DNA from: Thalassospira sp. MCCC 1A03138 | GTDB taxonomy: Bacteria > Pseudomonadota > Alphaproteobacteria > Rhodospirillales > Thalassospiraceae | Direction of reading: 5' to 3' | Assembly (NCBI RefSeq): GCF_002115785.1 | Contig: NZ_JFJY01000005.1 | Coordinates: forward strand, 248,001 to 312,000 | Length of the DNA: 64,000 nt | Part shown: positions 17,717-46,455 of the stretch, one piece after another | Layout: each line of letters starts with the position of its first letter | How positions within the stretch are numbered: position 1 is the stretch's first letter | Program-made: the position numbers and the translations under genes | The notes under the pieces: generated by a model | Told to the model about the DNA's origin: nothing | The model's input: only the letters and a program-made list of their open reading frames with translations | Databases searched by the model: none

Positions 17717-17792
17717 GCTGATGTAGCTCAGCTGGTAGAGCGGCGCATTCGTAATGCGTAGGTCGTAGGTTCAAATCCTATCATCAGCACCA
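17717..17792 (+). tRNA. tRNA-Thr (anticodon CGT)
   Basis: 76-nt cloverleaf with encoded CCA. Acceptor GCTGATG pairs with CATCAGC; D arm GCTC/GAGC; anticodon stem GCGCA/TGCGT around loop TTCGTAA, giving anticodon CGT (reads ACG); T arm GTAGG-TTCAAAT-CCTAT. It is very close to E. coli thrW. The R-body locus starts directly downstream of its terminator. Confidence 0.97.
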
Positions 17793-17864: not shown

Positions 17865-17890
17865 TGTCACAACCTCCGGTGCTCCCCGTC
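17865..17890 (+). promoter_or_regulatory. R-body sigma-type promoter P1 (TGTCACAA-N14-CGTC)
   Basis: -35-like TGTCACAA at 17865-17872 and -10-like CGTC at 17887-17890 with a 14-nt spacer. It precedes the first large gene (ATG 17990) by 99 bases. It is one of six copies of this motif in the locus with identical spacing. Confidence 0.75.
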
Positions 17891-17989
17891 CTTTTGACAT
17901 GTGAACCGTCGCAATCCTTGTGAAATCCGGTTCGGCGCAGGCGTGCACCCTCCGCAGCGTTTCGCAAGTGCAACCAGGGGATTGTCAGC

Positions 17990-19735
17990 ATGACCGACAA
18001 AGACCAACAGCCCAACAGCACCGAAAATGGCGGAAGCAATCCCGCCGCCACCAACGGCCCCAAAAGCCCGGCCGTCGATAACTGGCCGTGGGCCCATGTG
18101 CTGGGTTTCGACACGGCAAAGGAATGGGGTCTTGACGCCGTCATTCCACGCCCGTCTTCGGCCTCCCCAATCCCCGATCCGTCCAGTGGCACGACCGGCG
18201 GCAACAATCCGGGGCCGCTCGATGGGCTATCGGGCCATGCACCACTGCAAGGCCAGAATCTGATCGAATATGCCATGCAGAAAATCGAACAAGCCCTTGG
18301 CCAACCGATGCAGGCGGTCCCGCCACTGTCATCTTATAGCTATGACGAATACGGCAACCTGACTACAACGGCGAGCGCGACCGTACCGGCTCCGGCTCCG
18401 GCCCCGCAAAACGCGGCATCGGAAACATCATCTACCGGCTCCGCCCCCCCCGACAACGGAGGCGACGGGGACGACGATCTCACCGACGAAGAAGCCCCCC
18501 CCCGCTTTCAGGACCACGACGATACCGCAACCACGCCAAGCCGCCCGGCACCCGGGACGCCCGGCGTCAGCGGCCCGCAGTCCTATCGCGTTGATCTGAT
18601 CCGTGATGACGGCCGTGCGACACGGCTCGAAGGCAGCGTGACGTATGGCGATCTTTATCGCCCGCTTCTGCCCGAGCTATCCGGCAATGTCCAAAATGCC
18701 AAGACGCCGGACTGGTCGATCACACTTGATCAATTGCCCAACCCCGGCCCTACCGGCAGCGACACGGATGCCATCGTCACCGCACGGCTTGATGCCGCCG
18801 AAATCCCGGCTGATATCCGGCAATGGGCGCTATCGGCAGGGCCACAAGACATCAACACCGCCCGGCTGGCACTTGATATCCCGGCAACTCTGCCGTCTCT
18901 GACACGGGCCAGCATCATCGGTGGATTACCGTCCAGCGAATGGCACATGGCCGCGGCAACACTGGCAGCGGGCGGCAGCAGTACGGACAACTCCGGCACT
19001 TCGGTCCCGGACGCTGCCGAACCCGTTGCTCCGGCAAGCCTTGGCATGGATCAGCAACTCGGTACGATTGACAGCACGCAGGATCCGTTCATCGCCACCC
19101 TGCGCATCACATCGGCCATCACCAGCATCCCGACCTCGATCCCGGTTCAACTGCAATATACAGGTGCCCTGCCCAGCCCGATCTTGCAGGGTGACGTCCC
19201 TCTCACGACCGAAACCAGCCTGTCGCTTCGCATGCAGGTCATCGCCCCCACCGACGGTAAATCGGGCGCAACCCTTGTCGCGCTGATCCTGCGCGGGGCT
19301 GCGTCGGGCTTTTCGGTCACCGCACAACTGCGCGGCGATCACAAAATCTCAACCCCGACCGCGATGCTCGGCTGCATCGATCCGGACCAGGATACCGAAT
19401 GCCGCGCAGAAAGCATGATCGCCAATGCGAATTCCAGCCTGCAAACCAGCCTGATCAGCATCACCGACGCCCCCGATGATGACGGGCTTGCCGCCTATGG
19501 CTTTGTGCTGCCCGCACCGTCCGGTAACGACAGCACCACCGACGCAACCCCGACCGGCAAACCGGACAAAGGCACAAATATCGCCAAATCAGCCCCGGCG
19601 AAGCCAGCATCGGTAAAGGGCAAGGCCACCATCACTGACAACACCAGCAGCCCCCCCGATGCTGACAGCAATAACGGCGATACCGGCACTACCGCCACCA
19701 ACAGCCCCGGAAAAGCGGACAAGGGAGCCTCCTGA
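17990..19735 (+). CDS. Large low-complexity protein at the head of the R-body locus, unknown function
   Basis: 581 residues, no signal peptide or membrane helix, very rich in Pro, Ser, Thr, Gly, Asp and Ala. The N-terminal 60 residues hold an apparently structured piece (NWPWAHVLGFDTAKEWGLDA). Residues about 125-200 are disordered, encoded partly by C8 and C9 homopolymers. A central beta-rich region follows (SYRVDLIRDDGRATRLEGSV; WSITLDQLPNP; PFIATLRITSAITSIPTSIP; TLVALILRGAASGFSVTAQL). The C-terminal 80 residues are again disordered and Lys/Thr-rich. The start is supported by AGGGGA upstream. It is driven by promoter P1 and its TGA overlaps the next ATG (TGATG). I recognise no family. Co-regulation with the reb genes suggests an R-body assembly, packaging or accessory factor. 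Confidence 0.75.
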   Translation: MTDKDQQPNSTENGGSNPAATNGPKSPAVDNWPWAHVLGFDTAKEWGLDAVIPRPSSASPIPDPSSGTTGGNNPGPLDGLSGHAPLQGQNLIEYAMQKIEQALGQPMQAVPPLSSYSYDEYGNLTTTASATVPAPAPAPQNAASETSSTGSAPPDNGGDGDDDLTDEEAPPRFQDHDDTATTPSRPAPGTPGVSGPQSYRVDLIRDDGRATRLEGSVTYGDLYRPLLPELSGNVQNAKTPDWSITLDQLPNPGPTGSDTDAIVTARLDAAEIPADIRQWALSAGPQDINTARLALDIPATLPSLTRASIIGGLPSSEWHMAAATLAAGGSSTDNSGTSVPDAAEPVAPASLGMDQQLGTIDSTQDPFIATLRITSAITSIPTSIPVQLQYTGALPSPILQGDVPLTTETSLSLRMQVIAPTDGKSGATLVALILRGAASGFSVTAQLRGDHKISTPTAMLGCIDPDQDTECRAESMIANANSSLQTSLISITDAPDDDGLAAYGFVLPAPSGNDSTTDATPTGKPDKGTNIAKSAPAKPASVKGKATITDNTSSPPDADSNNGDTGTTATNSPGKADKGAS

Positions 19736-20376
19736 TGACAAGCGGCCCGAACTTTCCCGGCGTCGAAACGGCAAGCAGTAAAAAGGATGCGGTAAAAAAG
19801 GCCTTCAATCAGGAATATCAGGCCACCATGAAAGCCATGGCGAATGCCGCGGACCGTGCACGTGCGCAAGTTTTGAACCAGAAACTCGCCGCGGGAAGCC
19901 ACGCACAATCAAGCCAAAGCACAAAAACCGCCGCAACCGCCCCGAATGCGCCGGGCACCAACAACGCACCGTCAACCCCGATCGAGCCGGGCGCAATGGT
20001 CATGATCGAAATCGCCAATGAATTGCGCCGCATCATCGTCGCGGAAATTGACATGCGCATGAACCATCTGGCGGGACAGGTCGAACAGGCAATCGCACAG
20101 TCAATTCCGCCTGTGGCATCAAATGCACCTTCCGATACAAAACCCGCGGTCACCCAGCCTGCCGGAAGCGAAACCGGCACTGCCCCACAAACGCCTCAAC
20201 CAAATATTCCCGCCACGCCGCAAAGCAACGCGCAAAACCCAAGCGCCGCAGCGCCTCCCCAACCTACACCTTCTCCGGAAACCGCCCCGTCGGAACACAC
20301 CCGGCCCACAGTACCACAAACTGCCAATGCCGGTTCCGAAAATCCACCAAACGCCGCCCCACCGGCGGATGGATGA
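19735..20376 (+). CDS. Second low-complexity R-body-locus protein, unknown function
   Basis: 213 residues, translationally coupled to the 581-residue gene (TGATG). Residues 15-50 are predicted helical and basic/polar (KKDAVKKAFNQEYQATMKAM). Residues about 85-125 form a second amphipathic, coiled-coil-like helix (MVMIEIANELRRIIVAEIDM, then RMNHLAGQVEQAIAQS). The remaining C-terminal 90 residues are almost entirely Pro, Ala, Thr, Ser, Asn and Gln, hence disordered. No family recognised. Its position in the P1 transcription unit makes it part of the R-body regulon by inference. Confidence 0.72.
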   Translation: MTSGPNFPGVETASSKKDAVKKAFNQEYQATMKAMANAADRARAQVLNQKLAAGSHAQSSQSTKTAATAPNAPGTNNAPSTPIEPGAMVMIEIANELRRIIVAEIDMRMNHLAGQVEQAIAQSIPPVASNAPSDTKPAVTQPAGSETGTAPQTPQPNIPATPQSNAQNPSAAAPPQPTPSPETAPSEHTRPTVPQTANAGSENPPNAAPPADG

Positions 20377-20548
20377 TTCGGCTTTTGCCAAAGGTTGCAA
20401 GTCCGACCTGCAACTCGATCCCGCAGGAGGTGGGCCACGACCTAGGCGAGAAATCTGAAAAATATCTTTTAAAACAGAAGGTTAAAGGGTGCCATCTGCG
20501 ACTTTCCCAGCCAAAAATTGCGCAACCTTAAATAGTATTTTTCTTTTT
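20377..20548. other. Non-coding gap before the sigma gene
   Basis: No gene supported. It holds a weak hairpin GTTGCA...TGCAAC at about 20394-20414 that could end the two-gene P1 transcript, then AT-rich DNA leading into promoter P2. Confidence 0.4.
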
Positions 20549-20574
20549 CTTCACAATTAAGACTGCGCGCCGTC
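20549..20574 (+). promoter_or_regulatory. R-body sigma-type promoter P2 (CTTCACAA-N14-CGTC) of the sigma gene
   Basis: CTTCACAA at 20549-20556 differs from the other sites in the first two bases, with the identical 14-nt spacer and CGTC at 20571-20574. The GTG start of the sigma gene lies 62 bases after it. This implies positive autoregulation. Confidence 0.65.
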
Positions 20575-20635
20575 ATAATAGTCGCGAGAGACCTAAACAG
20601 CCTTTGGTTGTAATCTTTCTGAGGAGGGGTCCGAA

Positions 20636-21829
20636 GTGCAGTACGAAAAGAATACCGAACAGGGACAGACAGAACTATCGGAAAACGAAATCACGTTTGC
20701 CCAATCTCTAGACCATGCCTTGGAAAAGGCATTGGGGACAGGCGACAATGTCACATCAATCTGGTCGCACCTCAAAGATGAACAGCGCGCCAGACTGGCT
20801 GCAGACTACCTTGCCGCATTGAATACTGATTCTCGTAAAAGTAGCAATTTTGAAAACAATTCGCCAGCCTCACCCACCACGCCAGAGGCACAGCAAGGAA
20901 CAGCAGCAGCCCACACAGCCCCCCCGCCAACCGGGCCAGAAACCTCTGCCGTGCCGCGTGGTTATCCGGAGAATTTCAATCCATTGGCCGGATTTCCGGG
21001 ACTGGAACCATCGTCAAACGGCCCAAGCCCAACTGATATCATCGCCGGTAGCCTTGGCAATCCTGGCAGTCTTGCCGGGTTGGCCGGGTTGCAGGGAATG
21101 CCCGGCTCGCTAGGATTAGGCAACACCGGCAATCAGATCGACCAGATGCAGCGATCCCTGCAGGATGCGATGTCGCTGCTGGGCAATCTCGGTTTCGAAC
21201 AACCGGCTCCTTGCCAGCCCCTTGGCACCCCACCGACACACGCCCCCCATCCACGGGCATGGCAATCCGATCCCCTCGACGTTTCCGACCTTCCCGGTAT
21301 GGAACCGGCCGCGCCAAATTTCTGGCCGCTCTGGATGGATCAACAGGACAGCCTTCTTAAGCAATGCCTGAAACTGATGTCTGGCAATATGGATGACGCG
21401 CAGGATGCACTGTCCGAAGCCATGCTAAAGGCATCGGTAAAGTTCGAGGATTCAATGGACGAAATCCGTAATCACCGCGCATGGCTGTCACGGATCGTGC
21501 ACAATGCCTGCATTGATCTGCATCGGCAAAACCGCCGAAAGGCGGAATACAAGGAAGAAAACCACGGCACTGCGGATGCCGCCCTGCCGCCGATTTCTGG
21601 TCGCAACGAACCCAGCCCCGAGGAATCCTTCCTTGCGACCGAAATGTTCGACCACCTTGAACGCGCCTTACGCGCCCTTCCTGAAAAACTGCGCAAGCCA
21701 CTTCTGATGCGATGTGTCGAAGACCGCAGCTACGATGATATCGCGGTCAATCTCGGACTAAGCAATTGTGCCGTGCGTAAACGCGTTCAGCTTGCCCGCG
21801 ATCATCTGCGTGGCGCAGGCATCCAGTAA
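20636..21829 (+). CDS. Sigma-70-family (ECF-like) factor with long disordered N-terminus, putative R-body regulator
   Basis: 397 residues starting at a GTG with a strong AGGAGG eight bases upstream. Only the last 170 residues resemble a sigma factor. Region 2 is DSLLKQCLKLMSGNMDDAQD, ALSEAMLKAS and HRAWLSRIVHNACIDLHRQN. Region 4 is ALPEKLRKPLLMRCVEDRSY with the HTH YDDIAVNLGLSNCAVRKRVQ. Residues about 60-220 are Pro/Gly-rich (GSLGNPGSLAGLAGLQGMPG) and probably disordered, an unusual appendage for an ECF factor. No anti-sigma gene with a membrane helix lies nearby, so the N-terminus may itself be regulatory. It sits between the P1 genes and the reb genes, and the TGTCACAA-N14-CGTC promoters around it are its likely targets. 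Confidence 0.85.
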   Translation: MQYEKNTEQGQTELSENEITFAQSLDHALEKALGTGDNVTSIWSHLKDEQRARLAADYLAALNTDSRKSSNFENNSPASPTTPEAQQGTAAAHTAPPPTGPETSAVPRGYPENFNPLAGFPGLEPSSNGPSPTDIIAGSLGNPGSLAGLAGLQGMPGSLGLGNTGNQIDQMQRSLQDAMSLLGNLGFEQPAPCQPLGTPPTHAPHPRAWQSDPLDVSDLPGMEPAAPNFWPLWMDQQDSLLKQCLKLMSGNMDDAQDALSEAMLKASVKFEDSMDEIRNHRAWLSRIVHNACIDLHRQNRRKAEYKEENHGTADAALPPISGRNEPSPEESFLATEMFDHLERALRALPEKLRKPLLMRCVEDRSYDDIAVNLGLSNCAVRKRVQLARDHLRGAGIQ

Positions 21830-21849
21830 CCGCACGTGAAACCTGTTTA

Positions 21850-21881
21850 ACGGGCAGAATGACAAATGCCATTCTGCCCGT
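21850..21881 (+). terminator. Strong 12-bp hairpin after the sigma gene
   Basis: ACGGGCAGAATG pairs perfectly with CATTCTGCCCGT around an 8-nt loop, 20 bases after the sigma stop. There is no T-run, so it is either a weak/Rho-assisted terminator or an mRNA 3'-end stabiliser. Confidence 0.5.
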
Positions 21882-21961
21882 CTCAACGCCGGGCTTGAAA
21901 AAGATCCGGCCCGCAAAAGACTTACAGAAATCCCCTTGCTGGTAAAAAAAATCATCCGTCC

Positions 21962-21987
21962 TGTCACAACCCCGAATTGCCAGCGTC
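21962..21987 (+). promoter_or_regulatory. R-body sigma-type promoter P3 (TGTCACAA-N14-CGTC)
   Basis: TGTCACAA at 21962-21969, CGTC at 21984-21987, 14-nt spacer, 72 bases before the first reb gene (ATG 22060). Confidence 0.78.
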
Positions 21988-22059
21988 GATAGGGTGAATT
22001 CGGGACGGAGAAACCCCGTCAGGATTTCCACCGCAAGCAGCATACGAAGGAGTTTTGAA

Positions 22060-22383
22060 ATGGCGATTCCGACCCCGGTAAACGGTCAAATCACCGATGC
22101 CGTCACCCAGGCAAACGTCAAGGTGCTCGGTGATGCCCCGGCCATGGCTATGGGCTCGATCTTCCAGTCACTGGCCCATTCCACGGGCATTCTCTATGAA
22201 AATGCCGTCAGCGCCCAGCAGCAGCTTGGCATTTCCTCTCAGGCGGCAACCAACCAGGGTGTTATCCAGATCTATTCGATCGACACCATGGCAGATGCCG
22301 TCGCGACCTCGAAAATTGCCCAGAGCGACGTCCCCGACAACATGCTTTCGCTTCTGACCACCCTTCAGGCAGTCAAAAGCTAA
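22060..22383 (+). CDS. RebB-family R-body protein 1
   Basis: 107-residue R-body structural subunit. The start at MAIPTPVNGQITDAV is set by GAAGGAG upstream. The N-terminal hallmark VNGQITDAVTQANVKVLGDA is followed by PAMAMGSIFQSLAHSTGIL and NAVSAQQQLGISSQAATNQG, the RebB ('killing trait', PF11747) pattern as I know it; the C-terminus DNMLSLLTTLQAVKS is hydrophobic. Reb proteins polymerise into a coiled ribbon that can extend violently, for example at low pH in Caedibacter. Own promoter P3 and own terminator-like hairpin. Closest relatives in the window are reb proteins 2 and 6. Confidence 0.9.
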   Translation: MAIPTPVNGQITDAVTQANVKVLGDAPAMAMGSIFQSLAHSTGILYENAVSAQQQLGISSQAATNQGVIQIYSIDTMADAVATSKIAQSDVPDNMLSLLTTLQAVKS

Positions 22384-22407
22384 GCCCCGTCCTCCAAGAC
22401 CTCCCCG

Positions 22408-22441
22408 ATTGGGCGGCCCGTTTTCCGACCGGCCGCCCAAT
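22408..22441 (+). terminator. Hairpin terminator after reb gene 1
   Basis: ATTGGGCGGCC and GGCCGCCCAAT form a perfect 11-bp stem with a 12-nt loop, followed by ATCGTTT. The T-run is poor, so termination may be partial. Confidence 0.6.
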
Positions 22442-22483
22442 ATCGTTTCCCGGCAATTTCGCCCGCAGTTTTTGGCGGTTTGA

Positions 22484-22509
22484 CGTCACAAAGGCACATC
22501 CCCCCCGTC
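22484..22509 (+). promoter_or_regulatory. R-body sigma-type promoter P4 (CGTCACAA-N14-CGTC)
   Basis: CGTCACAA at 22484-22491 (first base differs), CGTC at 22506-22509, 14-nt spacer ending in a run of Cs; 77 bases before the reb gene 2 start. Any change in C-run length would alter the spacer. Confidence 0.72.
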
Positions 22510-22585
22510 AAATGACTGATCGCCGCGCACCACGCGGAACGGGCCGGTTTCCGGCATATTTATCCAGGCAACCAGGAGACAGATT

Positions 22586-22921
22586 ATGGCTGATAATACC
22601 CCGGTCAATGGCATGATTACCGATGCAGTGACCCAGGCCAATGTCAAAGTACTGGGCGATGCACCGGCCATGGCCATGGGCTCGCTGTTTCAGTCGCTGG
22701 CACATTCCCACGGCATTCTTTACGAAAACGCCGTCAGCAACCAGCAGCAGGTCGGCATCTCGTCGCAGGCTGCAACCAATCAGGGCGTCATTCAGGTCTA
22801 TTCCGTCGATACCATGGCGGGTGCCGTGGCAACGCAGAAAATCGCAACTAGCGACGTTCCGGACAACATGCTTGCATTGCTGTCCGCCCTGAAGGCAACC
22901 ACCGGCACAGCAGTGTCGTAA
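22586..22921 (+). CDS. RebB-family R-body protein 2
   Basis: 111 residues, nearly a duplicate of protein 1: VNGMITDAVTQANVKVLGDA, PAMAMGSLFQSLAHSHGILY, SSQAATNQGVIQVYSVDTMA and a C-terminal DNMLALLSALKATTG. The start has AGGAGA nine bases before it. It is a likely major R-body subunit. It is monocistronic between promoter P4 and a clear Rho-independent terminator. The high identity with protein 1 suggests a recent tandem duplication including the promoter. Confidence 0.9.
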   Translation: MADNTPVNGMITDAVTQANVKVLGDAPAMAMGSLFQSLAHSHGILYENAVSNQQQVGISSQAATNQGVIQVYSVDTMAGAVATQKIATSDVPDNMLALLSALKATTGTAVS

Positions 22922-22950
22922 ACCTTCATTGGTTTCACCGCCCGAACCGG

Positions 22951-22982
22951 CCCGGCATGCAAAAGCTTGCCGGGCTTTTTTT
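22951..22982 (+). terminator. Rho-independent terminator after reb gene 2
   Basis: CCCGGCA...TGCCGGG stem (22951-22973) followed by a run of T. The T-run leads straight into promoter P5 at 22984 with no gap. Confidence 0.85.
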
Positions 22983-22983
22983 G

Positions 22984-23009
22984 TGTCACAAATTCCGATC
23001 CTCACCGTC
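22984..23009 (+). promoter_or_regulatory. R-body sigma-type promoter P5 (TGTCACAA-N14-CGTC)
   Basis: TGTCACAA at 22984-22991, CGTC at 23006-23009, 14-nt spacer, 38 bases before the reb gene 3 start. It abuts the preceding terminator. Confidence 0.78.
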
Positions 23010-23047
23010 ATTGCGATGTAGTTCACGCGCCAGCCAAGGAGACCGCG

Positions 23048-23347
23048 ATGGCACCGGCAAATACCGACCCGTCCGACAACAATTCCGACGCAACCCCCGT
23101 CGCAGACGCGGTGGAAAATTTGCAGGATCAGGTATCCCATCAGATCAGTGACGCTGTCAGTCTGGTAAATGTTGGCACCCTTGGTGTCGGCCCGGCCTAC
23201 GCCACCCTGCAATCCATGCTGGCACAGTCACAGGCACAGGGTGTTTTGATGGCCAACATGGTTTCCGGTCAGCGGCAACTATCCATGACCGGCATGGCCA
23301 CCCTGACCAAAAGCATCGAACAGATGATGTCGCGTCCTAACCGATAA
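23048..23347 (+). CDS. RebB-related R-body protein 3 (divergent)
   Basis: 99 residues from the ATG at 23048, supported by AAGGAGA. About 30 residues of polar, Asp/Asn-rich N-terminus precede the reb core SHQISDAVSLVNVGTLGVGP and AYATLQSMLAQSQAQGVLMA, then NMVSGQRQL. It shares 'AQSQAQGVL-AN-MV--Q-QL' with protein 4, so the two form a separate sub-type. Eleven bases separate it from gene 4 on one transcript from P5. It may be a minor subunit or assembly factor comparable to the non-structural Reb proteins; this is inference. Confidence 0.82.
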   Translation: MAPANTDPSDNNSDATPVADAVENLQDQVSHQISDAVSLVNVGTLGVGPAYATLQSMLAQSQAQGVLMANMVSGQRQLSMTGMATLTKSIEQMMSRPNR

Positions 23348-23358
23348 GGATCAGAACG

Positions 23359-23604
23359 ATGAGCAACCCGCGCGAAGTCGACGAACAGATCACCGATGGC
23401 GTAACGCAAACAAACACCACCGTCATAGGCTCCGCACCCGCCATGGGAACCATGCAGACTTACCTGTCGCAGGCCCAGGCACAGGGCGTGCTGTTTGCAA
23501 ACATGGTCAATGAACAGCAACAGCTTGCCGTCGCCAGCCTGGCGACCACCATGGAATGCGCCCGTAATACGCTGGCGATCGGGGACAAAGGCCCAAAGTC
23601 CTAA
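23359..23604 (+). CDS. RebB-related R-body protein 4 (divergent)
   Basis: 81 residues. Core DEQITDGVTQTNTTVIGSAP is the canonical Reb N-terminus; AMGTMQTYLSQAQAQGVLFA and NMVNEQQQLAVASLATTMEC follow, like protein 3. It lacks the C-terminal 'QAATNxGV' block of the 107-111-residue subunits. Second gene of the P5 unit. Confidence 0.84.
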   Translation: MSNPREVDEQITDGVTQTNTTVIGSAPAMGTMQTYLSQAQAQGVLFANMVNEQQQLAVASLATTMECARNTLAIGDKGPKS

Positions 23605-23616
23605 GGGGGGATAATA

Positions 23617-23768
23617 ATGGGACAGCAAAGCGCCCCCCCGACCTAAAGAGCGCACCGCCTCCCGCCCCCAAAAGACCGGAAGATCCGAACAGCAATACCG
23701 AACTGAACGACGACGAACTTAAACGCCAGCAGGACGAATACGAAAGACAGAGACAGGCCGGACAATAA
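23617..23768 (+). pseudogene. Small charged R-body-locus gene interrupted at a C7 tract
   Basis: An ATG at 23617 with a GGGGGG ribosome site opens MGQQSAPP and stops after ten codons. Immediately after the C7 run (23633-23639), the alternative frame continues DLKSAPPPAPKRPEDP, NSNTELNDDELKRQQDEYER and QRQAGQ to the TAA at 23766-23768. One extra C restores a continuous 50-residue Pro-then-coiled-coil protein. So this is either a natural off-state of a slippery tract, a decayed gene, or a sequencing error. Confidence 0.5.
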
Positions 23769-23839
23769 CAGCACTTTAAACGGCTGCGTCGATTCTGACC
23801 CGACCTGCGGACAAACCTTCAAGACAAAGGCATGACGTC

Positions 23840-24064
23840 ATGAGCGATATCGTCAATCCGCAAATCACCGATGCCGTGACTCAGACCAACGTCAAGGTGC
23901 TGGGCGAAAGCCCGGCACAGGCGGTATCAATCGCCCTGCAATCGCATTCCCATTCGACAGGCCTGGCTATGGAAAATGCCACTCTGACACAGGGAAACAT
24001 GCAACAGGTCGCCAATACCGCAACCTCAAAACTGGTGGCCATGATCACAGCCCAAGCCGGTTGA
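23840..24064 (+). CDS. RebB-family R-body protein 5 (short form)
   Basis: 74 residues: VNPQITDAVTQTNVKVLGES, PAQAVSIALQSHSHSTGLAM, then NATLTQGNMQQVANTATSKL. It matches protein 7 in length and in the 'MQQV-NTATSKL' type ending, and lacks the C-terminal hydrophobic part of proteins 1, 2 and 6. I found no copy of the promoter motif directly upstream, so it probably depends on read-through from P5. Confidence 0.87.
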   Translation: MSDIVNPQITDAVTQTNVKVLGESPAQAVSIALQSHSHSTGLAMENATLTQGNMQQVANTATSKLVAMITAQAG

Positions 24065-24089
24065 TAAAAAGGTCACCATTCAGGATTTT

Positions 24090-24115
24090 TGTCACAAAGA
24101 TCAATCATCTGCGTC
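24090..24115 (+). promoter_or_regulatory. R-body sigma-type promoter P6 (TGTCACAA-N14-CGTC)
   Basis: TGTCACAA at 24090-24097, CGTC at 24112-24115, 14-nt spacer, 42 bases before the reb gene 6 start at 24158. Confidence 0.78.
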
Positions 24116-24157
24116 AAAACGGGTACGGTCATCGTGACCGCCAAATCGGAGGAAGAA

Positions 24158-24481
24158 ATGGCTATTCCAACCCCAGTGAACGGTCAGATCACAGATGCGG
24201 TGACCCAGACATCGGTCAGCGTTCTCGGCTCGGCCCCGGCAAATGCCATGGGCATGATCTATCAAAGTGCCGCGCATTCGACATCCATCCTGTTCCAGAA
24301 CGCTATCCAGGCCCAGCAACAGGCCTCGATGTGCTCGCAGGCCGCAACCAATATGGGTGTGATGCAGCTTTACTCGGTCAATACAATGGCCGGTGCGCAG
24401 GCAACAACCAAGCTGTCGCGATCCGACAACAGCAACACACTTCTGACCCTTTTGGTCATTTTGGCAGCAACTCGCCGGTAG
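24158..24481 (+). CDS. RebB-family R-body protein 6
   Basis: 107 residues with the start MAIPTPVNGQITDAVTQTSV set by GGAGGAA. It carries the full-length pattern: LGSAPANAMGMIYQSAAHST, NAIQAQQQASMCSQAATNMG, VMQLYSVNTMAGAQATTKLS. It is identical to protein 1 over the first 16 residues and divergent later, including a basic end LLVILAATRR. A Cys (MCSQ) is unique among the paralogues. First gene of the P6 unit, followed by reb genes 7 and 8. Confidence 0.9.
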   Translation: MAIPTPVNGQITDAVTQTSVSVLGSAPANAMGMIYQSAAHSTSILFQNAIQAQQQASMCSQAATNMGVMQLYSVNTMAGAQATTKLSRSDNSNTLLTLLVILAATRR

Positions 24482-24540
24482 GCAGCATTCGGATGTCACG
24501 CGCCGTGCGTGTTATCCGGCAATTTCAGTGAGGGCGTGAC

Positions 24541-24798
24541 ATGGCAGACAACACCCCGGTAAATTCCCAGATTACGGACGCGGTCACGCAGACCAACGTC
24601 AAGGTTCTGGGCGAGGCTCCGGCACAGGCAATGGGGCTCGTGTATCAGACGATGGCACATTCCATCAGTCTATCGATGCAGAACGCCATGCAAACCCAGG
24701 GCGGACTGCAACAGATCGGCAATGCCGTAACCTCCAGCGCGTGCAAAATGATTCTCGACAGCACCGGTGGCGGCATGGGTGGCGGCGGCAAATCCTGA
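24541..24798 (+). CDS. RebB-family R-body protein 7 (short form)
   Basis: 85 residues: VNSQITDAVTQTNVKVLGEA, PAQAMGLVYQTMAHSISLSM, NAMQTQGGLQQIGNAVTSSA, ending in a Gly-rich tail (GGGMGGGGKS). Short-form subunit like protein 5. A partial motif TGTCACG at 24494 lacks a correctly spaced CGTC, so it is probably co-transcribed with gene 6 (59-base gap). Confidence 0.87.
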   Translation: MADNTPVNSQITDAVTQTNVKVLGEAPAQAMGLVYQTMAHSISLSMQNAMQTQGGLQQIGNAVTSSACKMILDSTGGGMGGGGKS

Positions 24799-24887
24799 CG
24801 CCGCCAACATGATTTCCCACGCCTTAAACGTCCGGCAACTTTGCGCCAAGCTCCTGAAACCGACCTGTTAACGCGATGAGGCCCGTC

Positions 24888-25457
24888 ATGGCTGACGAAA
24901 ACGAAAATCCCCCAAAGGATACCCCTCCCGCTGGTGGAAATCCCGCCGATGAACAGGGTGCCGCCGATCCCGAAAAAGCCGAAGACAAAGCCTCCCCTGC
25001 GGCCGAAGCCCAAGGTGGTGCTGGTGACGGCAAAGCTGCCGGCGGCGACACTCCGCCCGCGAATGTTGGCACCGCTGGCGGAGGAGGTGGCGGTGGCGCA
25101 AACAACACACCGCTCAGCACCGCCCTTAACCCGCAAATCGTTCAGGCCGTCGGCACCACCAATCACGCCGTACTGAACGGGGCCGGTCCGGGCGCCAACG
25201 GGATCGCCTATCAAAAGGTCGCGCAGGCCGCCGCCTACGCCGTACAGGACAGCACCGATTACATGCGCAACATCATGTCGATGGCGTCTGCCACAACCGG
25301 TGTCGCGCTGCAAAAGATGCTGGTGGAAAAAACGACCGATCCCTATGCCGATATCATCAAGGCGGCAACGCAGGCCGTCACCGATGCCCAGCAAACATTT
25401 ACCAATGTCGGTACGGCATCAAGCGGTGTGGTCAAGGATTTCGACAGTATGGCCTGA
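24888..25457 (+). CDS. Reb-related protein 8 with long acidic low-complexity N-terminus
   Basis: 189 residues from the ATG at 24888 (GATGAGG upstream; an ATG at 24876 lacks a ribosome site). Residues 1-75 are Asp/Glu/Pro/Gly/Ala-rich with an eight-Gly stretch. Residues about 80-145 are a diverged Reb core (NPQIVQAVGTTNHAVLNGAG, PGANGIAYQKVAQAAAYAVQ). The C-terminal 45 residues (DIIKAATQAVTDAQQTFTNV) look helical. It could be a ribbon-capping, nucleating or tethering component. Last gene of the P6 unit. Confidence 0.78.
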   Translation: MADENENPPKDTPPAGGNPADEQGAADPEKAEDKASPAAEAQGGAGDGKAAGGDTPPANVGTAGGGGGGGANNTPLSTALNPQIVQAVGTTNHAVLNGAGPGANGIAYQKVAQAAAYAVQDSTDYMRNIMSMASATTGVALQKMLVEKTTDPYADIIKAATQAVTDAQQTFTNVGTASSGVVKDFDSMA

Positions 25458-25467
25458 TAATAGTGAA

Positions 25468-25482
25468 GCGGGATCATCCCGC
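25468..25482. terminator. Bidirectional hairpin between reb gene 8 and the cyclase
   Basis: GCGGGA-TCA-TCCCGC, a short symmetric hairpin lying in the 16-base convergent gap and over the cyclase stop codon. No T-run on either strand. Confidence 0.35.
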
Positions 25483-26778
25483 CTGCATCAACTGGATACG
25501 CTCGCACGCTTCGGCAAAGTCCGGCGCAAACAGTTTCAGGCTCAAACCCGTGCCGTGAAGCTCGAAGGCGCCCATTTCTTCCGTCGGACAGGAAATGAAC
25601 TTCGCCACCTGATGACTGACCAGAACCCGTTTGCCAAGCTGCTTGGTCAACTGTTCGATCCGGGCGGCTTCGTTGGCCGCCTGCCCGATCACGGTAAAAT
25701 CGACCCGGTCGGGCACGCCGACATTGCCGTAAATCACATCACCAACATGCATGCCAAGCCCGTAATCAAAGGCCGGCAATCCGGTTTCTTCGCGCTGGCG
25801 GTTAAGCTGATCGATATTAAGCTGCGCCTCGGCTGCGGCGTAAACCGCGGCCGTACAGGCCTGTTCCAGATCCTGCTCATCCTCGCGGATCGGGAAAATC
25901 GCCAATGTCGCATCCCCGATATAGCGTAAGACCTGCCCGCCATGCTTCAGGACCGCACCGGCCGTCGCGGCAAAGAAATCATTCATTTCGCCCAGAAAAG
26001 CATCATCCCCGACACTGGCGGCAACCGATGTCGAATTGCGCATATCGGAAAACCAGATCACTGCACGCGTCTTGGTACTGTCGCCCAGCTTGATCTGCCC
26101 GTCGCGCACCCGATGCCCGGCATCCGAACCCAGATAGGTTTCAAGGATCGTCTTGGTTTCTTCGTGCATGATGCGCATTTTGCACGACACGGCAAAACGG
26201 CGCTGGATCGATGACAGGATTGCCAGATCCTCGTCGGTAAAGCCGCTGGGCCGACGCGTCATATAGGTCATGAAGATACGGTTCGTACCCAGCGTGCTGT
26301 CGCGGTCCGTGGTAAAGGGCGTCATCAGCGCCAGATAATCCGTGCCGCCGGATTTGCGGAAAGTCTGCAAAACATTGAAATCAAGGATCGCCCCCGGCCC
26401 GATCAGATGGCGACGCATGAAGGTGACATCGTTATCGGACATCCACTTCATCGGGCTATCAAGCCAGTCGGGGTTCTTTTCGCGCACATCAAGATGCAGC
26501 GACCGTTCAACCCGGCCCTCATCCTTGGACCAGATATAGGAAACGCCTTCATACAGCGGATGCAGGGTCTTGAAACCAACCATGACTCGTTCGATCGGAA
26601 TGCCCGCGGCAACAAGCCGCGACACCATGCCTTCAACAATCGCGTCAATATCGGTATCGTCGAGTGCGCGCTCCATCAGCCAATCATTGACCGCCCGCAC
26701 AAAGCCACCGCCAGACAGGGCACTGTTCGTACCCGGCAGCGACGTGACATTGTTGTTGGACTTCGTGTTTTCCGGCAT
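25474..26778 (-). CDS. Class III adenylate/guanylate cyclase
   Basis: 434 residues. The C-terminal half is a class III cyclase domain: AVIWFSDMRNSTSVA (first metal Asp), QVLRYIGDATLAIFP (second metal Asp), GLGMHVGDVIYGNVG and DFTVIGQAANEAARIEQ. The N-terminal 230 residues (ERVMVGFKTLHPLYEGVSYI; GAILDFNVLQTFRKSGG) resemble a GAF-like sensory region seen in many alphaproteobacterial cyclases. It makes cAMP (or cGMP) for signalling. It converges on the R-body locus; whether the two are functionally linked is not shown by the sequence. Confidence 0.9.
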   Translation of the reverse strand: MPENTKSNNNVTSLPGTNSALSGGGFVRAVNDWLMERALDDTDIDAIVEGMVSRLVAAGIPIERVMVGFKTLHPLYEGVSYIWSKDEGRVERSLHLDVREKNPDWLDSPMKWMSDNDVTFMRRHLIGPGAILDFNVLQTFRKSGGTDYLALMTPFTTDRDSTLGTNRIFMTYMTRRPSGFTDEDLAILSSIQRRFAVSCKMRIMHEETKTILETYLGSDAGHRVRDGQIKLGDSTKTRAVIWFSDMRNSTSVAASVGDDAFLGEMNDFFAATAGAVLKHGGQVLRYIGDATLAIFPIREDEQDLEQACTAAVYAAAEAQLNIDQLNRQREETGLPAFDYGLGMHVGDVIYGNVGVPDRVDFTVIGQAANEAARIEQLTKQLGKRVLVSHQVAKFISCPTEEMGAFELHGTGLSLKLFAPDFAEACERIQLMQAG

Positions 26779-46392: not shown

Positions 46393-46455
46393 AAGTATCC
46401 GTTCACAAATATCGGATTACTCCGTCTACCTGCTGACACTTGTCAGCAACTCCGG

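What the first reader, a model, noticed from the sequence alone, without database searches (positions are those of the whole stretch)
17865..25457. Complete R-body (Reb) locus with eight reb-type genes and unknown accessory proteins
Eight small proteins (74-189 residues) share the Reb core QITDAVTQxNVKVLGxAPA. R-bodies are coiled protein ribbons that unroll like a spring; in Caedibacter and Azorhizobium reb genes are linked to killing of eukaryotic hosts. Here the reb genes come with two large low-complexity proteins, a sigma factor and a possible phase-variable small gene. Membership in the Reb family is recognised from sequence; that this strain makes R-bodies is inference. In a marine-type alphaproteobacterium the target could be protists or algae.
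Basis: partly seen in the sequence, partly recalled or inferred. Interest (0 to 1): 0.95.

Follow-up and report, generated by a model that had tools for sequence, protein, structure and literature searches.

The report
R-body cluster with a frameshifted subunit
This bacterium (of the marine Thalassospira group) carries a gene set for R-bodies, coiled protein ribbons linked elsewhere to killing of other cells; its gene units share one promoter-like pattern that the cluster's own sigma factor likely reads, one ribbon-protein gene is predicted to make two proteins by a programmed ribosome slip, and the same pattern also sits before genes of DNA-cutting enzyme families in some related clusters, which gives a way to look for the long-sought R-body toxin.

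Summary
In detail: 17,866-25,457 is a reb (R-body) cluster. Seven of the eight small proteins pass the PF11747 cut-off; the eighth is a remote, S4-like relative. Reb clusters in Thalassospira are already published, so the locus itself is not new. Three things in it appear to be.

(1) Promoter-like sites GTCACAA-N14-CGTC occur five times in the locus (0.01 expected in the window), plus one with T for G before the sigma gene. A relaxed form precedes cluster genes in 63 of 72 reb loci. The cluster's ECF sigma factor is the likely reader.

(2) The 'phase-variable small gene' is better read as a -1 frameshift tail on reb4. In 23 of 24 reb-bearing genomes of the genus a canonical slippery heptamer sits in frame and the -1 frame stays open 30-75 codons past the stop.

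(3) In some relatives the same site precedes nuclease-family genes: DNase II (Kordiimonas) and a CdtB-like protein (Paraburkholderia). Here that slot holds a fast-evolving 581-residue protein. These are candidate cargo, untested.

R-body formation, promoter use, frameshifting and killing were not tested.

The parts
17866..17890 (+). promoter-like site 1, GTCACAA-N14-CGTC, 99 bp before the 581-aa ORF
17990..19735 (+). 581-aa accessory protein (A581): predicted disordered ends, two predicted beta-rich (sandwich-like) regions (about 197-310 and 350-491); no Pfam or PHROG match, no fold match
19735..20376 (+). 213-aa accessory protein (B213), conserved N-terminal block and Pro-rich tail; its start overlaps the stop of A581
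20550..20574 (+). promoter-like site 2, TTCACAA-N14-CGTC, 61 bp before the sigma gene (autoregulation inferred)
20636..21829 (+). ECF-type sigma factor, 397 aa, with about 230-aa N-terminal extension; GTG start behind GAGGAGGGG
21963..21987 (+). promoter-like site 3, before reb1
22060..22383 (+). reb1, 107 aa, PF11747 99.2 bits
22485..22509 (+). promoter-like site 4, before reb2
22586..22921 (+). reb2, 111 aa, PF11747 96.3 bits
22985..23009 (+). promoter-like site 5, before reb3 (a reb3-reb4-reb5 unit is inferred)
23048..23347 (+). reb3, 99 aa, PF11747 42.8 bits
23359..23604 (+). reb4, 81 aa in frame 0, PF11747 50.2 bits
23592..23598 (+). predicted -1 slippery heptamer C CCA AAG, in frame 0 of reb4, 10 nt before its stop codon
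23598..23768 (+). -1 frame tail of reb4, 56 codons and TAA, no ATG/GTG/TTG in frame; predicted long form 136 aa
23605..23639 (+). possible frameshift-stimulating stem-loop (G6 with C6 of C7), 6 nt after the heptamer; not stronger than shuffles
23840..24064 (+). reb5, 74 aa, PF11747 67.2 bits
24091..24115 (+). promoter-like site 6, before reb6 (a reb6-reb7-S4-like unit is inferred)
24158..24481 (+). reb6, 107 aa, PF11747 87.1 bits
24541..24798 (+). reb7, 85 aa, PF11747 86.5 bits
24888..25457 (+). S4-like remote Reb protein, 189 aa: Pro/Gly/charged N-terminal part, then a Reb-like region
25474..26778 (-). flanking nucleotide cyclase (PF00211), in the same place in all 20 Thalassospira-type loci and in the five reb-less species examined

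Best explanation
The stretch 17,866-25,457 is an R-body (reb) gene cluster with seven Reb-family genes, a remote S4-like Reb relative, two accessory proteins and its own ECF sigma factor, which likely switches on the whole cluster, itself included, through six matching promoter-like sites, and its gene reb4 is predicted to yield a short and a long protein by programmed -1 frameshifting. Shown by sequence: the PF11747 memberships, the six sites at one fixed spacing, their recurrence before reb and sigma genes in relatives, the in-frame slippery heptamer and the conserved open -1 tail. Inferred: that the sites are promoters and that this sigma reads them, that ribosomes rather than RNA polymerase slip, that the long Reb4 is a minor capping or cargo-holding subunit of the ribbon, and that A581/B213 are carried by or fitted to the R-body. 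Once made, the ribbon would unroll in an acid vacuole of a grazer and break its membrane, as held for other R-bodies (recalled, not tested here).
For: Reb family. Sites: five exact GTCACAA-N14-CGTC matches in the window against 0.01 expected, none of 100 shuffles reaching five. In the own 4.56-Mb genome 6 of 14 KTCACAA-N14-CGTC matches lie in this locus. In the window's 20 kb plus 71 reb loci of other genomes there are 127 matches (118 on the forward strand), 0 for the reversed pattern; on the forward strand the gaps 10-13 and 15-19 together give 9. Of the 127, 116 precede ORFs classed as Reb (85), sigma (24), A581 (5) or S4-like (2). Relaxed KTCACR-N15-CGTY: 182 of 237 before cluster genes, in 63 of 72 loci; reversed control 16, of which 2 before cluster genes. 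Frameshift: in-frame X XXY YYZ heptamer plus -1 frame open 30-75 codons past the reb4 stop in 23 of 24 reb-bearing genomes of the genus, 23 distinct predicted products; 19 of 20 in the named loci, an overlapping set, against 11 of 419 other Reb-like ORFs; tail dN/dS 0.21-0.79 in the 10 of 12 chosen pairs that give a ratio; the window and five other genomes have no ATG/GTG/TTG in the tail. The NPLAG block of the sigma extension is in 20 of 20 sigma ORFs beside reb genes and 0 of 5 in reb-less species.
Against: No transcript, protein or micrograph. Eight of 14 own-genome site matches lie outside the locus, one of them in the window at 46402, with no R-body-like ORF seen behind them by eye. The sigma-site pairing is by association only. 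The relaxed site with a gap one longer has 84 matches, 21 of them before cluster genes, so that control is not clean; nine of 72 loci lack the relaxed site before a cluster gene. The stem-loop after the heptamer is no more stable than shuffles (z -0.88 and -0.46). One genome, G025 (L163, the L025 type), has no heptamer and instead a separate ORF overlapping the stop. Seventeen of 23 tails do hold an ATG, GTG or TTG somewhere. The dN/dS pairs are short and not independent: four of the ten ratios rest on two to six changes, and one of the two pairs without a ratio has two changes, both non-synonymous. Five genus members keep the sigma gene without any reb gene, so the sigma may have other work.
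Confidence: 0.72

Rival explanations
1. The tail region behind reb4 is a separate, phase-variable small gene whose poly-C (here) or poly-T (relatives) tract switches it on and off by changes of length.
For: There is an ATG at 23616 in a third frame followed by a C7 tract and a stop, and T7-T8 tracts are present in the relatives of the T type.
Against: In 23 of 24 genomes the tail lies in the -1 frame of reb4 and no tract length that alters this was seen. The close relative L023 has no ATG at that place. Two unrelated slippery sequences serve the same frame relation. The C7 tract here lies inside the -1 frame after the reb4 stop, so its length in this genome keeps the tail open.
Confidence: 0.08
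2. The long Reb4 is made by RNA-polymerase slippage or by coupled re-initiation at the reb4 stop rather than by ribosomal -1 frameshifting; the products would be the same or similar.
For: A run of at least seven T lies at the junction in all 18 genomes whose heptamer is not C CCA AAG; the L025 type has an ATG overlapping the stop.
Against: The window and four close genomes have no long homopolymer before the reb4 stop but a canonical C CCA AAG heptamer, with a 6-nt spacer and a possible stem in the three such loci folded, and no start codon in the tail.
Confidence: 0.22
3. The repeated sites bind a different regulator, for example another sigma factor encoded elsewhere or a Crp/Fnr-type activator, and the local sigma factor serves other genes.
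For: Five reb-less species keep the sigma gene. A Crp/Fnr gene lies in 11 of 71 reb loci by one query (see also PMC3583457 Results). In PA14 both RcgA and FecI2 are needed (PMC8322103 section 8). The own genome has 12 cyclic-nucleotide-binding proteins elsewhere.
Against: Two blocks at a fixed 14-base gap with CGT in the second block is an ECF promoter form (recalled); 24 of the 127 strict sites precede a sigma gene of the cluster, and all five orphan sigma genes keep such a site 35-61 bp upstream; outside the locus no regulon stands out.
Confidence: 0.15
4. The cluster is ordinary and inactive: a conserved but cryptic reb locus that makes no R-bodies in this species.
For: No expression data; the one search for Thalassospira with R-body lists two papers, one a survey of reb genes, the other seen in the listing only.
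Against: Gene order and open frames are kept in all 20 Thalassospira-type loci; reb1 is 92-100% identical across them.
Confidence: 0.1

Closest known systems
Reb loci of Group 2 synteny in Proteobacteria (Raymann et al. 2013, PMC3583457; Dorr et al. 2026, PMC13430693)
   Same: PF11747 genes side by side, an RNA-polymerase sigma gene, hypothetical proteins of about 200 aa; Thalassospira is named by Dorr et al. as a genus where reb genes are prevalent.
   Different: Seven Reb genes plus one remote relative, a 581-aa protein found only in Thalassospira-type loci and records, no cyclic-nucleotide-binding protein on the whole contig, a -1 tail on reb4 and a promoter-like pattern; neither paper, in the sections read, reports frameshifting or a promoter pattern.
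P. aeruginosa PA14 reb cluster (rebP1P2, rapA, fecI2, rcgA; PMC8322103)
   Same: A sigma factor of the cluster (FecI2) is needed for reb expression; a further protein (RapA) sits on the R-body, as the S4-like protein here may.
   Different: The three Pseudomonas loci at hand (L080, L082, L088) lack the pattern before cluster genes, so the code differs or has drifted; PA14 itself was not fetched.
Azorhizobium caulinodans reb operon (PMC5527310)
   Same: Reb genes in an alphaproteobacterium, tight control, effect on a eukaryotic host (abstract).
   Different: Controlled by PraR and RebR (Crp-Fnr); the words 'sigma factor' do not occur in the paper (listing).
Phage lambda gpG/gpG-T and similar -1 frameshifted assembly proteins (recalled, no call)
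   Same: A small structural or assembly protein made in two lengths by a slippery heptamer near its 3' end.
   Different: No sequence relation tested; here the host is a cellular R-body cluster and frameshifting is predicted only.

Membership tests
Reb / R-body protein family (PF11747) | Pfam RebB domain above the curated cut-off, seven proteins | tested here: met
   42.8-99.2 bits against 24
Reb / R-body protein family (PF11747) | the same for the eighth protein (24888-25457) | tested here: not met
   no PF11747 match at E <= 10; remote match to a local Reb profile only
R-body-producing locus | visible coiled ribbons that unroll, for example at low pH | not testable with these tools
   needs microscopy
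Group 2 reb synteny (Raymann 2013) | sigma-factor gene in the cluster | tested here: met
   20636-21829, sigma70 r2/r4
Group 2 reb synteny (Raymann 2013) | HP2.1 and HP2.2 (about 205-220 aa) | tested here: inconclusive
   B213 (213 aa) and the S4-like protein (189 aa) are near in size; their sequences were not compared with HP2.1/HP2.2
Group 2 reb synteny (Raymann 2013) | cyclic-nucleotide-binding regulator (HP2.4) nearby | tested here: not met
   12 PF00027 matches in the own genome, none on contig C29 that holds the locus; a nucleotide cyclase lies beside the cluster instead. Raymann calls the association frequent, not universal
Secondary group S4 (Dorr 2026) | extended Pro-rich and charged N-terminus, weak Reb region, extended C-terminus | tested here: inconclusive
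   features seen, but the paper's seed sequences were not at hand
ECF sigma factor | sigma70 regions 2 and 4 without region 3 | tested here: met
   PF04542 and PF08281, no region 3 model listed; TIGR02937 68.3 bits against 42.9
Programmed -1 frameshift site | X XXY YYZ heptamer in the zero frame | tested here: met
   C CCA AAG at 23592-23598; 23 of 24 genomes
Programmed -1 frameshift site | conserved -1 coding sequence after the stop | tested here: met
   open 30-75 codons in 23 of 24; dN/dS 0.21-0.79 in the 10 of 12 pairs with a ratio
Programmed -1 frameshift site | stimulating RNA structure 5-9 nt downstream | tested here: inconclusive
   6-bp stem at 6 nt in the window, L022, L023 and L024, not beyond shuffles in the window
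Programmed -1 frameshift site | measured frameshifting | not testable with these tools
   needs a reporter or peptides

The most novel reading that the evidence does not exclude
R-bodies are delivery machines run by one dedicated sigma regulon with exchangeable cargo. The shared promoter code marks not only the ribbon genes but the poison they deliver: DNase II in Kordiimonas, a CdtB-like nuclease in Paraburkholderia, an unknown protein of about 205 aa in Caulobacterales and the beta-rich A581 in Thalassospira, which uses a frameshift-made long Reb4 as the ribbon's cap or cargo hook. The killing toxin sought since kappa particles would thus be lineage-specific and readable from its promoter.
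Probability: 0.3. Interest if true: 0.88.

Novelty: new variant of a known kind. Interest (0 to 1): 0.64.

Why it matters
R-bodies have been known since the kappa particles of Paramecium, but what they deliver and how they are switched on is open in most bacteria; Raymann et al. found no shared toxin beside reb genes (PMC3583457, Results read in part). A promoter-like pattern shared by most of the clusters examined gives a sequence handle on the whole R-body regulon, including genes no homology search would connect to it, and points to nucleases as candidate cargo. A conserved frameshift on one ribbon subunit would be, as far as the searches show, the first translational recoding described for R-bodies, and would explain how a minor long subunit is supplied at a fixed ratio. 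Each point can be tested with a reporter, a deletion or mass spectrometry.

Tried and rejected
Phase variation of a small gene at 23616: rejected, see rivals. A wider regulon in the own genome: around the eight site matches outside the locus the ORFs of 110 aa or more, read by eye, show nothing R-body-like; no homology search was made on them. A regulon of the orphan sigma in the five reb-less species: 33 matches against 20 for the reversed control, so nothing stands out. Fold of A581: model usable only for residues about 197-310 and 350-491 (mean pLDDT 53.4); no Foldseek match at E <= 0.001 in PDB or viral models; the sequence search (7,994 candidates scored, a capped number) gave seven proteins, four with a Thalassospira or Thalassospiraceae name and three without a name. 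Phage origin: no reb1 match in 50,697 phage records and none confirmed in viral contigs by a search that reaches close relatives only, but of the seven Reb proteins six were sent to PHROGs (reb6 was not) and all six match phrog_32040 (best E 1.3e-20), so a viral relative exists in that library; left open. Plasmid carriage: 17 of 72,556 plasmid records hold reb1 relatives; here the locus is on a 353-kb contig, replicon not determined. The first heptamer scan had a frame bug and missed the window's own reb4; it was replaced and its numbers are not used. One search stopped with a script error and was redone. DNase II is not a general part of R-body loci: 2 of 71 loci, and none of 385 genomes of the class, 15 of which have Reb genes; the search itself works, since it found the gene in both genomes known to have it. 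The relaxed site has chance matches: 55 of 237 lie before no classed cluster gene, so some of the 'other' genes named here may be chance too.


Full report
What is there. The window belongs to a 4.56-Mb assembly of 33 contigs whose nearest named relatives are Thalassospira. Between a tRNA-Thr gene (17717-17792) and a nucleotide cyclase gene on the other strand (25474-26778, PF00211) lie eleven ORFs on the plus strand: a 581-aa protein (A581), a 213-aa protein (B213), a sigma factor, seven Reb proteins and a 189-aa remote Reb relative. Seven of eight small proteins pass PF11747; the own genome has no other PF11747 match and 14 control genomes have none. In the genus 24 of 29 genomes have Reb genes. 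The order A581-B213-sigma-Reb genes-S4-like, with the cyclase behind, is the same in all 20 Thalassospira-type loci: the window, 18 records named Thalassospira and one MAG named Rhodospirillales. Several of them have an extra Reb gene.

Known background. Reb homologs are widespread, and two synteny groups were described by Raymann et al. (PMC3583457; abstract and parts 1-2 of 3 of the Results read): Group 2 has two hypothetical proteins of 205-220 aa and frequently a sigma-factor gene and a cyclic-nucleotide regulator; no shared toxin was found. Dorr et al. 2026 (PMC13430693; abstract, Results and part 1 of 2 of the Discussion read) list Thalassospira among genera where R-body genes are prevalent and define secondary groups S1-S4. 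In PA14 the sigma factor FecI2 and RcgA are needed for rebP1 expression, and RapA sits on the R-body (PMC8322103; abstract, sections 6, 8, 9 and passages). In Rhodospirillum centenum a seven-gene R-body operon rises up to 50-fold during encystment (PMC4340629, passages); in Pseudomonas Pf-5 two reb genes rise under iron limitation (PMC3377617, passages). So the locus as such is a new member of a known kind.

Promoter-like sites. GTCACAA, 14 bases, CGTC occurs five times in the 64-kb window, all in this locus and all on the plus strand; shuffles give 0.01 on average and none of 100 reached five. A sixth site with T for the first G precedes the sigma gene; one more such T-form lies outside the locus at 46402. 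The distances from site to start codon are 99, 61, 72, 76, 38 and 42 bp. In the whole genome KTCACAA-N14-CGTC has 14 matches, six of them here, and the reversed control has one; behind the other eight no R-body-like ORF was seen by eye. In the window's 20 kb plus the 71 named reb loci (one search kept 80 of 173 confirmed stretches, 71 distinct loci) there are 127 matches, 118 on the forward strand, and none of the reversed pattern; on the forward strand gaps 10-13 and 15-19 together give 9, six of them gap 15. A site was assigned to the first-ending ORF on its strand that a profile of a window protein recognises, ends at least 150 bp on and starts less than 400 bp or 300 bp on; the classes 'Reb' and 'S4-like' overlap, since the S4 profile also takes small Reb proteins. 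Of the 127, 116 precede a Reb (85), sigma (24), A581 (5) or S4-like (2) ORF and 11 precede none of these, one of which is a sigma gene by its sequence (L058). Of the 71 loci, 48 have the strict site; the 23 without it are 20 loci of other classes and three alphaproteobacteria (L038, L070, L084), while one gammaproteobacterium, Methylobacter (L048), has it.

A wider form. For 22 of the loci without the strict site (L038 left out) a count of spaced word pairs in 72 upstream regions gave, behind pairs that run into the coding start, TTCAC-N16-CGTT in 16 regions: the same site with a changed last base. KTCAC-N16-CGTT has 38 matches in these 22 loci, 22 before cluster genes; gaps 14, 15, 17 and 18 give 13, 4, 8 and 3 matches with 0, 1, 0 and 1 before cluster genes. 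The joint form KTCACR-N15-CGTY has 237 matches in all 72 loci: 118 before Reb, 33 sigma, 15 A581, 16 S4-like and 55 other. It precedes a cluster gene in 63 of 72 loci. Controls: reversed 16 matches (2 before cluster genes), gap one shorter 20 (2), gap one longer 84 (21); the last is not clean, and some Kordiimonas-type loci do seem to use the longer gap. The nine loci without it before a cluster gene are L068, L070, L074, L078, L080, L082, L087, L088 and L092, which include the three Pseudomonas and three Xanthomonas loci of the set. On the Ruegeria pomeroyi megaplasmid three sites of this kind lie 38, 36 and 38 bp before annotated genes of the reb cluster, two of them RebB genes. That these are promoters, and that the cluster's own sigma factor reads them, is inference from association and from the ECF promoter form (recalled).

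The sigma factor. It has regions 2 and 4 only and an N-terminal extension of about 230 residues. The extension keeps a block with NPLAG in 20 of 20 sigma ORFs beside reb genes in the Thalassospira-type loci (alignment, partly cut). No anti-sigma gene stood out in the cluster; no dedicated search was made. Five genus members without Reb genes keep the tRNA, this sigma gene (46-48% over the whole protein in two, 77% over the sigma domains in three) and the cyclase, while tblastn at E <= 1e-3 finds no A581, B213 or Reb gene between. All five orphan sigma genes keep an ATCACAA-N14-CGTC site 35-61 bp before the ORF start used, and four of five have a second KTCACAA-N14-CGTC site 276-378 bp further up; the NPLAG block is in none of the five. 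This looks like loss of the reb genes with the sigma left behind; what the orphan does is unknown.

The reb4 tail. Frame 0 of reb4 ends GGC CCA AAG TCC TAA (23590-23604). C CCA AAG is a canonical X XXY YYZ heptamer in frame. After a slip of -1 the frame is open for 56 codons to TAA at 23766-23768, with no ATG, GTG or TTG. Among the 24 reb-bearing genomes of the genus 23 have such a heptamer and a -1 frame open 30-75 codons past the stop: C CCA AAG in five, U UUU UUU alone in two, A AAU UUU with U UUU UUU in sixteen. All 23 predicted long products are distinct. The one exception (G025) has a separate ORF whose start overlaps the reb4 stop. The named loci, an overlapping set, give 19 of 20, against 11 of the other 419 Reb-like ORFs by the same two criteria; the +1 frame gives 12 of 439, six of them reb4 genes again. 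In the -1 tails past the stop, 12 chosen pairs were compared: ten give dN/dS of 0.21, 0.26, 0.27, 0.28, 0.31, 0.39, 0.45, 0.51, 0.57 and 0.79; two give no ratio, one for want of synonymous changes (two non-synonymous ones seen), one by saturation. Pairs share lineages, and four of the ten rest on two to six changes. By eye most T-tract tails share a W..LD.RF.G-like block, and the window type shares EL.D.EL.RQQ. Outside Thalassospira the Reb gene next upstream of the 74-80 aa Reb carries an in-frame tail of 34 to 123 residues in L038-L041 and L048, so a long form seems useful there too. The window, L022, L023 and L024 place a 6-bp stem 6 nt after the heptamer, but in the window the stem is not beyond shuffles. 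No paper found joins R-bodies with frameshifting in this sense: one search lists one paper, where the words are unrelated (passages), and one search lists two unrelated ones.

Accessory proteins and candidate cargo. A581 evolves fast: in tblastn best segments it is 57-77% identical in three loci and 26-34% in the other sixteen, where reb1 is 92-100% and the cyclase 77-96% identical. Its model has two beta-rich regions between disordered ends and no fold match. Under the relaxed site, relatives have other non-Reb genes (which took only ORFs with a Shine-Dalgarno-like stretch). In Kordiimonas marina there is a DNase II (PF03265, E 1.2e-77) with the site 28 bp before its start; its 63% identical relative in locus L039 has the site with the longer gap. 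In Paraburkholderia loci L069 and L072 there is an Exo_endo_phos protein (PF03372 for the one scanned, L069; the two are 91% identical) whose nearest solved relatives are CdtB proteins (best E 4.3e-6). Five Caulobacterales loci have a family of about 205 aa, without Pfam match in the two scanned. Others have a large family (L059, with relatives in L044, L048 and L060), small families, and the Crp/Fnr regulator (L067; relatives in ten more loci). DNase II is absent from 385 genomes of the class drawn evenly, of which 15 have Reb genes, while the same search finds it in both genomes where it is known. Its place in two reb clusters is therefore unlikely to be background, though the two organisms are related and may count as one event. 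No paper held joins R-bodies with DNase II or with cytolethal distending toxin. In P. aeruginosa the ribonuclease Ribocin has been discussed as possible R-body cargo, with evidence that other routes are plausible too (PMC13189344, passages). That any of these is delivered by R-bodies is a hypothesis.

Verdict. R-body locus: very likely. Sigma-run regulon: likely. Frameshifted Reb4: likely on comparative evidence, unmeasured. Cargo idea: open, and now testable. Statements that something is not in print rest, in an open-access library only; classical R-body papers are mostly outside it.

Noticed in passing
L107-L111 (five Thalassospira genomes without Reb genes): The ECF sigma gene, with its own promoter-like site, survives between tRNA-Thr and the cyclase where all reb genes are absent; its remaining targets are unknown.
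   Followed up: partly
L040:6421-7494 and L039:6396-7442: A DNase II gene (PF03265), absent from 385 other genomes of the class, sits in the reb cluster behind the R-body promoter-like site in Kordiimonas marina and a related MAG (there with a gap one longer).
   Followed up: partly
L069:12050-12745 and L072:12115-12813: A CdtB-like endonuclease-family protein behind the R-body promoter-like site next to reb genes in two Paraburkholderia.
   Followed up: partly
L049:8726-9334(-), L052, L054, L056, L058: A family of about 205 aa (no Pfam match in the two scanned) behind the same site in Caulobacterales reb loci; a DEIVVEMK stretch recalls nuclease motifs (recalled, not tested).
   Followed up: partly
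L059:16991-20092(-), with relatives in L044, L048 and L060: A very large protein family (no Pfam match in the two scanned) beside reb clusters; its C-terminal part has Cys/His motifs that recall cysteine peptidases (recalled, not tested).
   Followed up: no
L048 (Methylobacter tundripaludum): A gammaproteobacterium with two reb sub-clusters of alphaproteobacterial type and the CGTC form of the site; suggests transfer.
   Followed up: no
25474-26778, minus strand: A nucleotide cyclase is the conserved neighbour of the cluster in Thalassospira, while cyclic-nucleotide regulators neighbour reb clusters elsewhere; a link is possible, but the cyclase also stays in reb-less species.
   Followed up: partly
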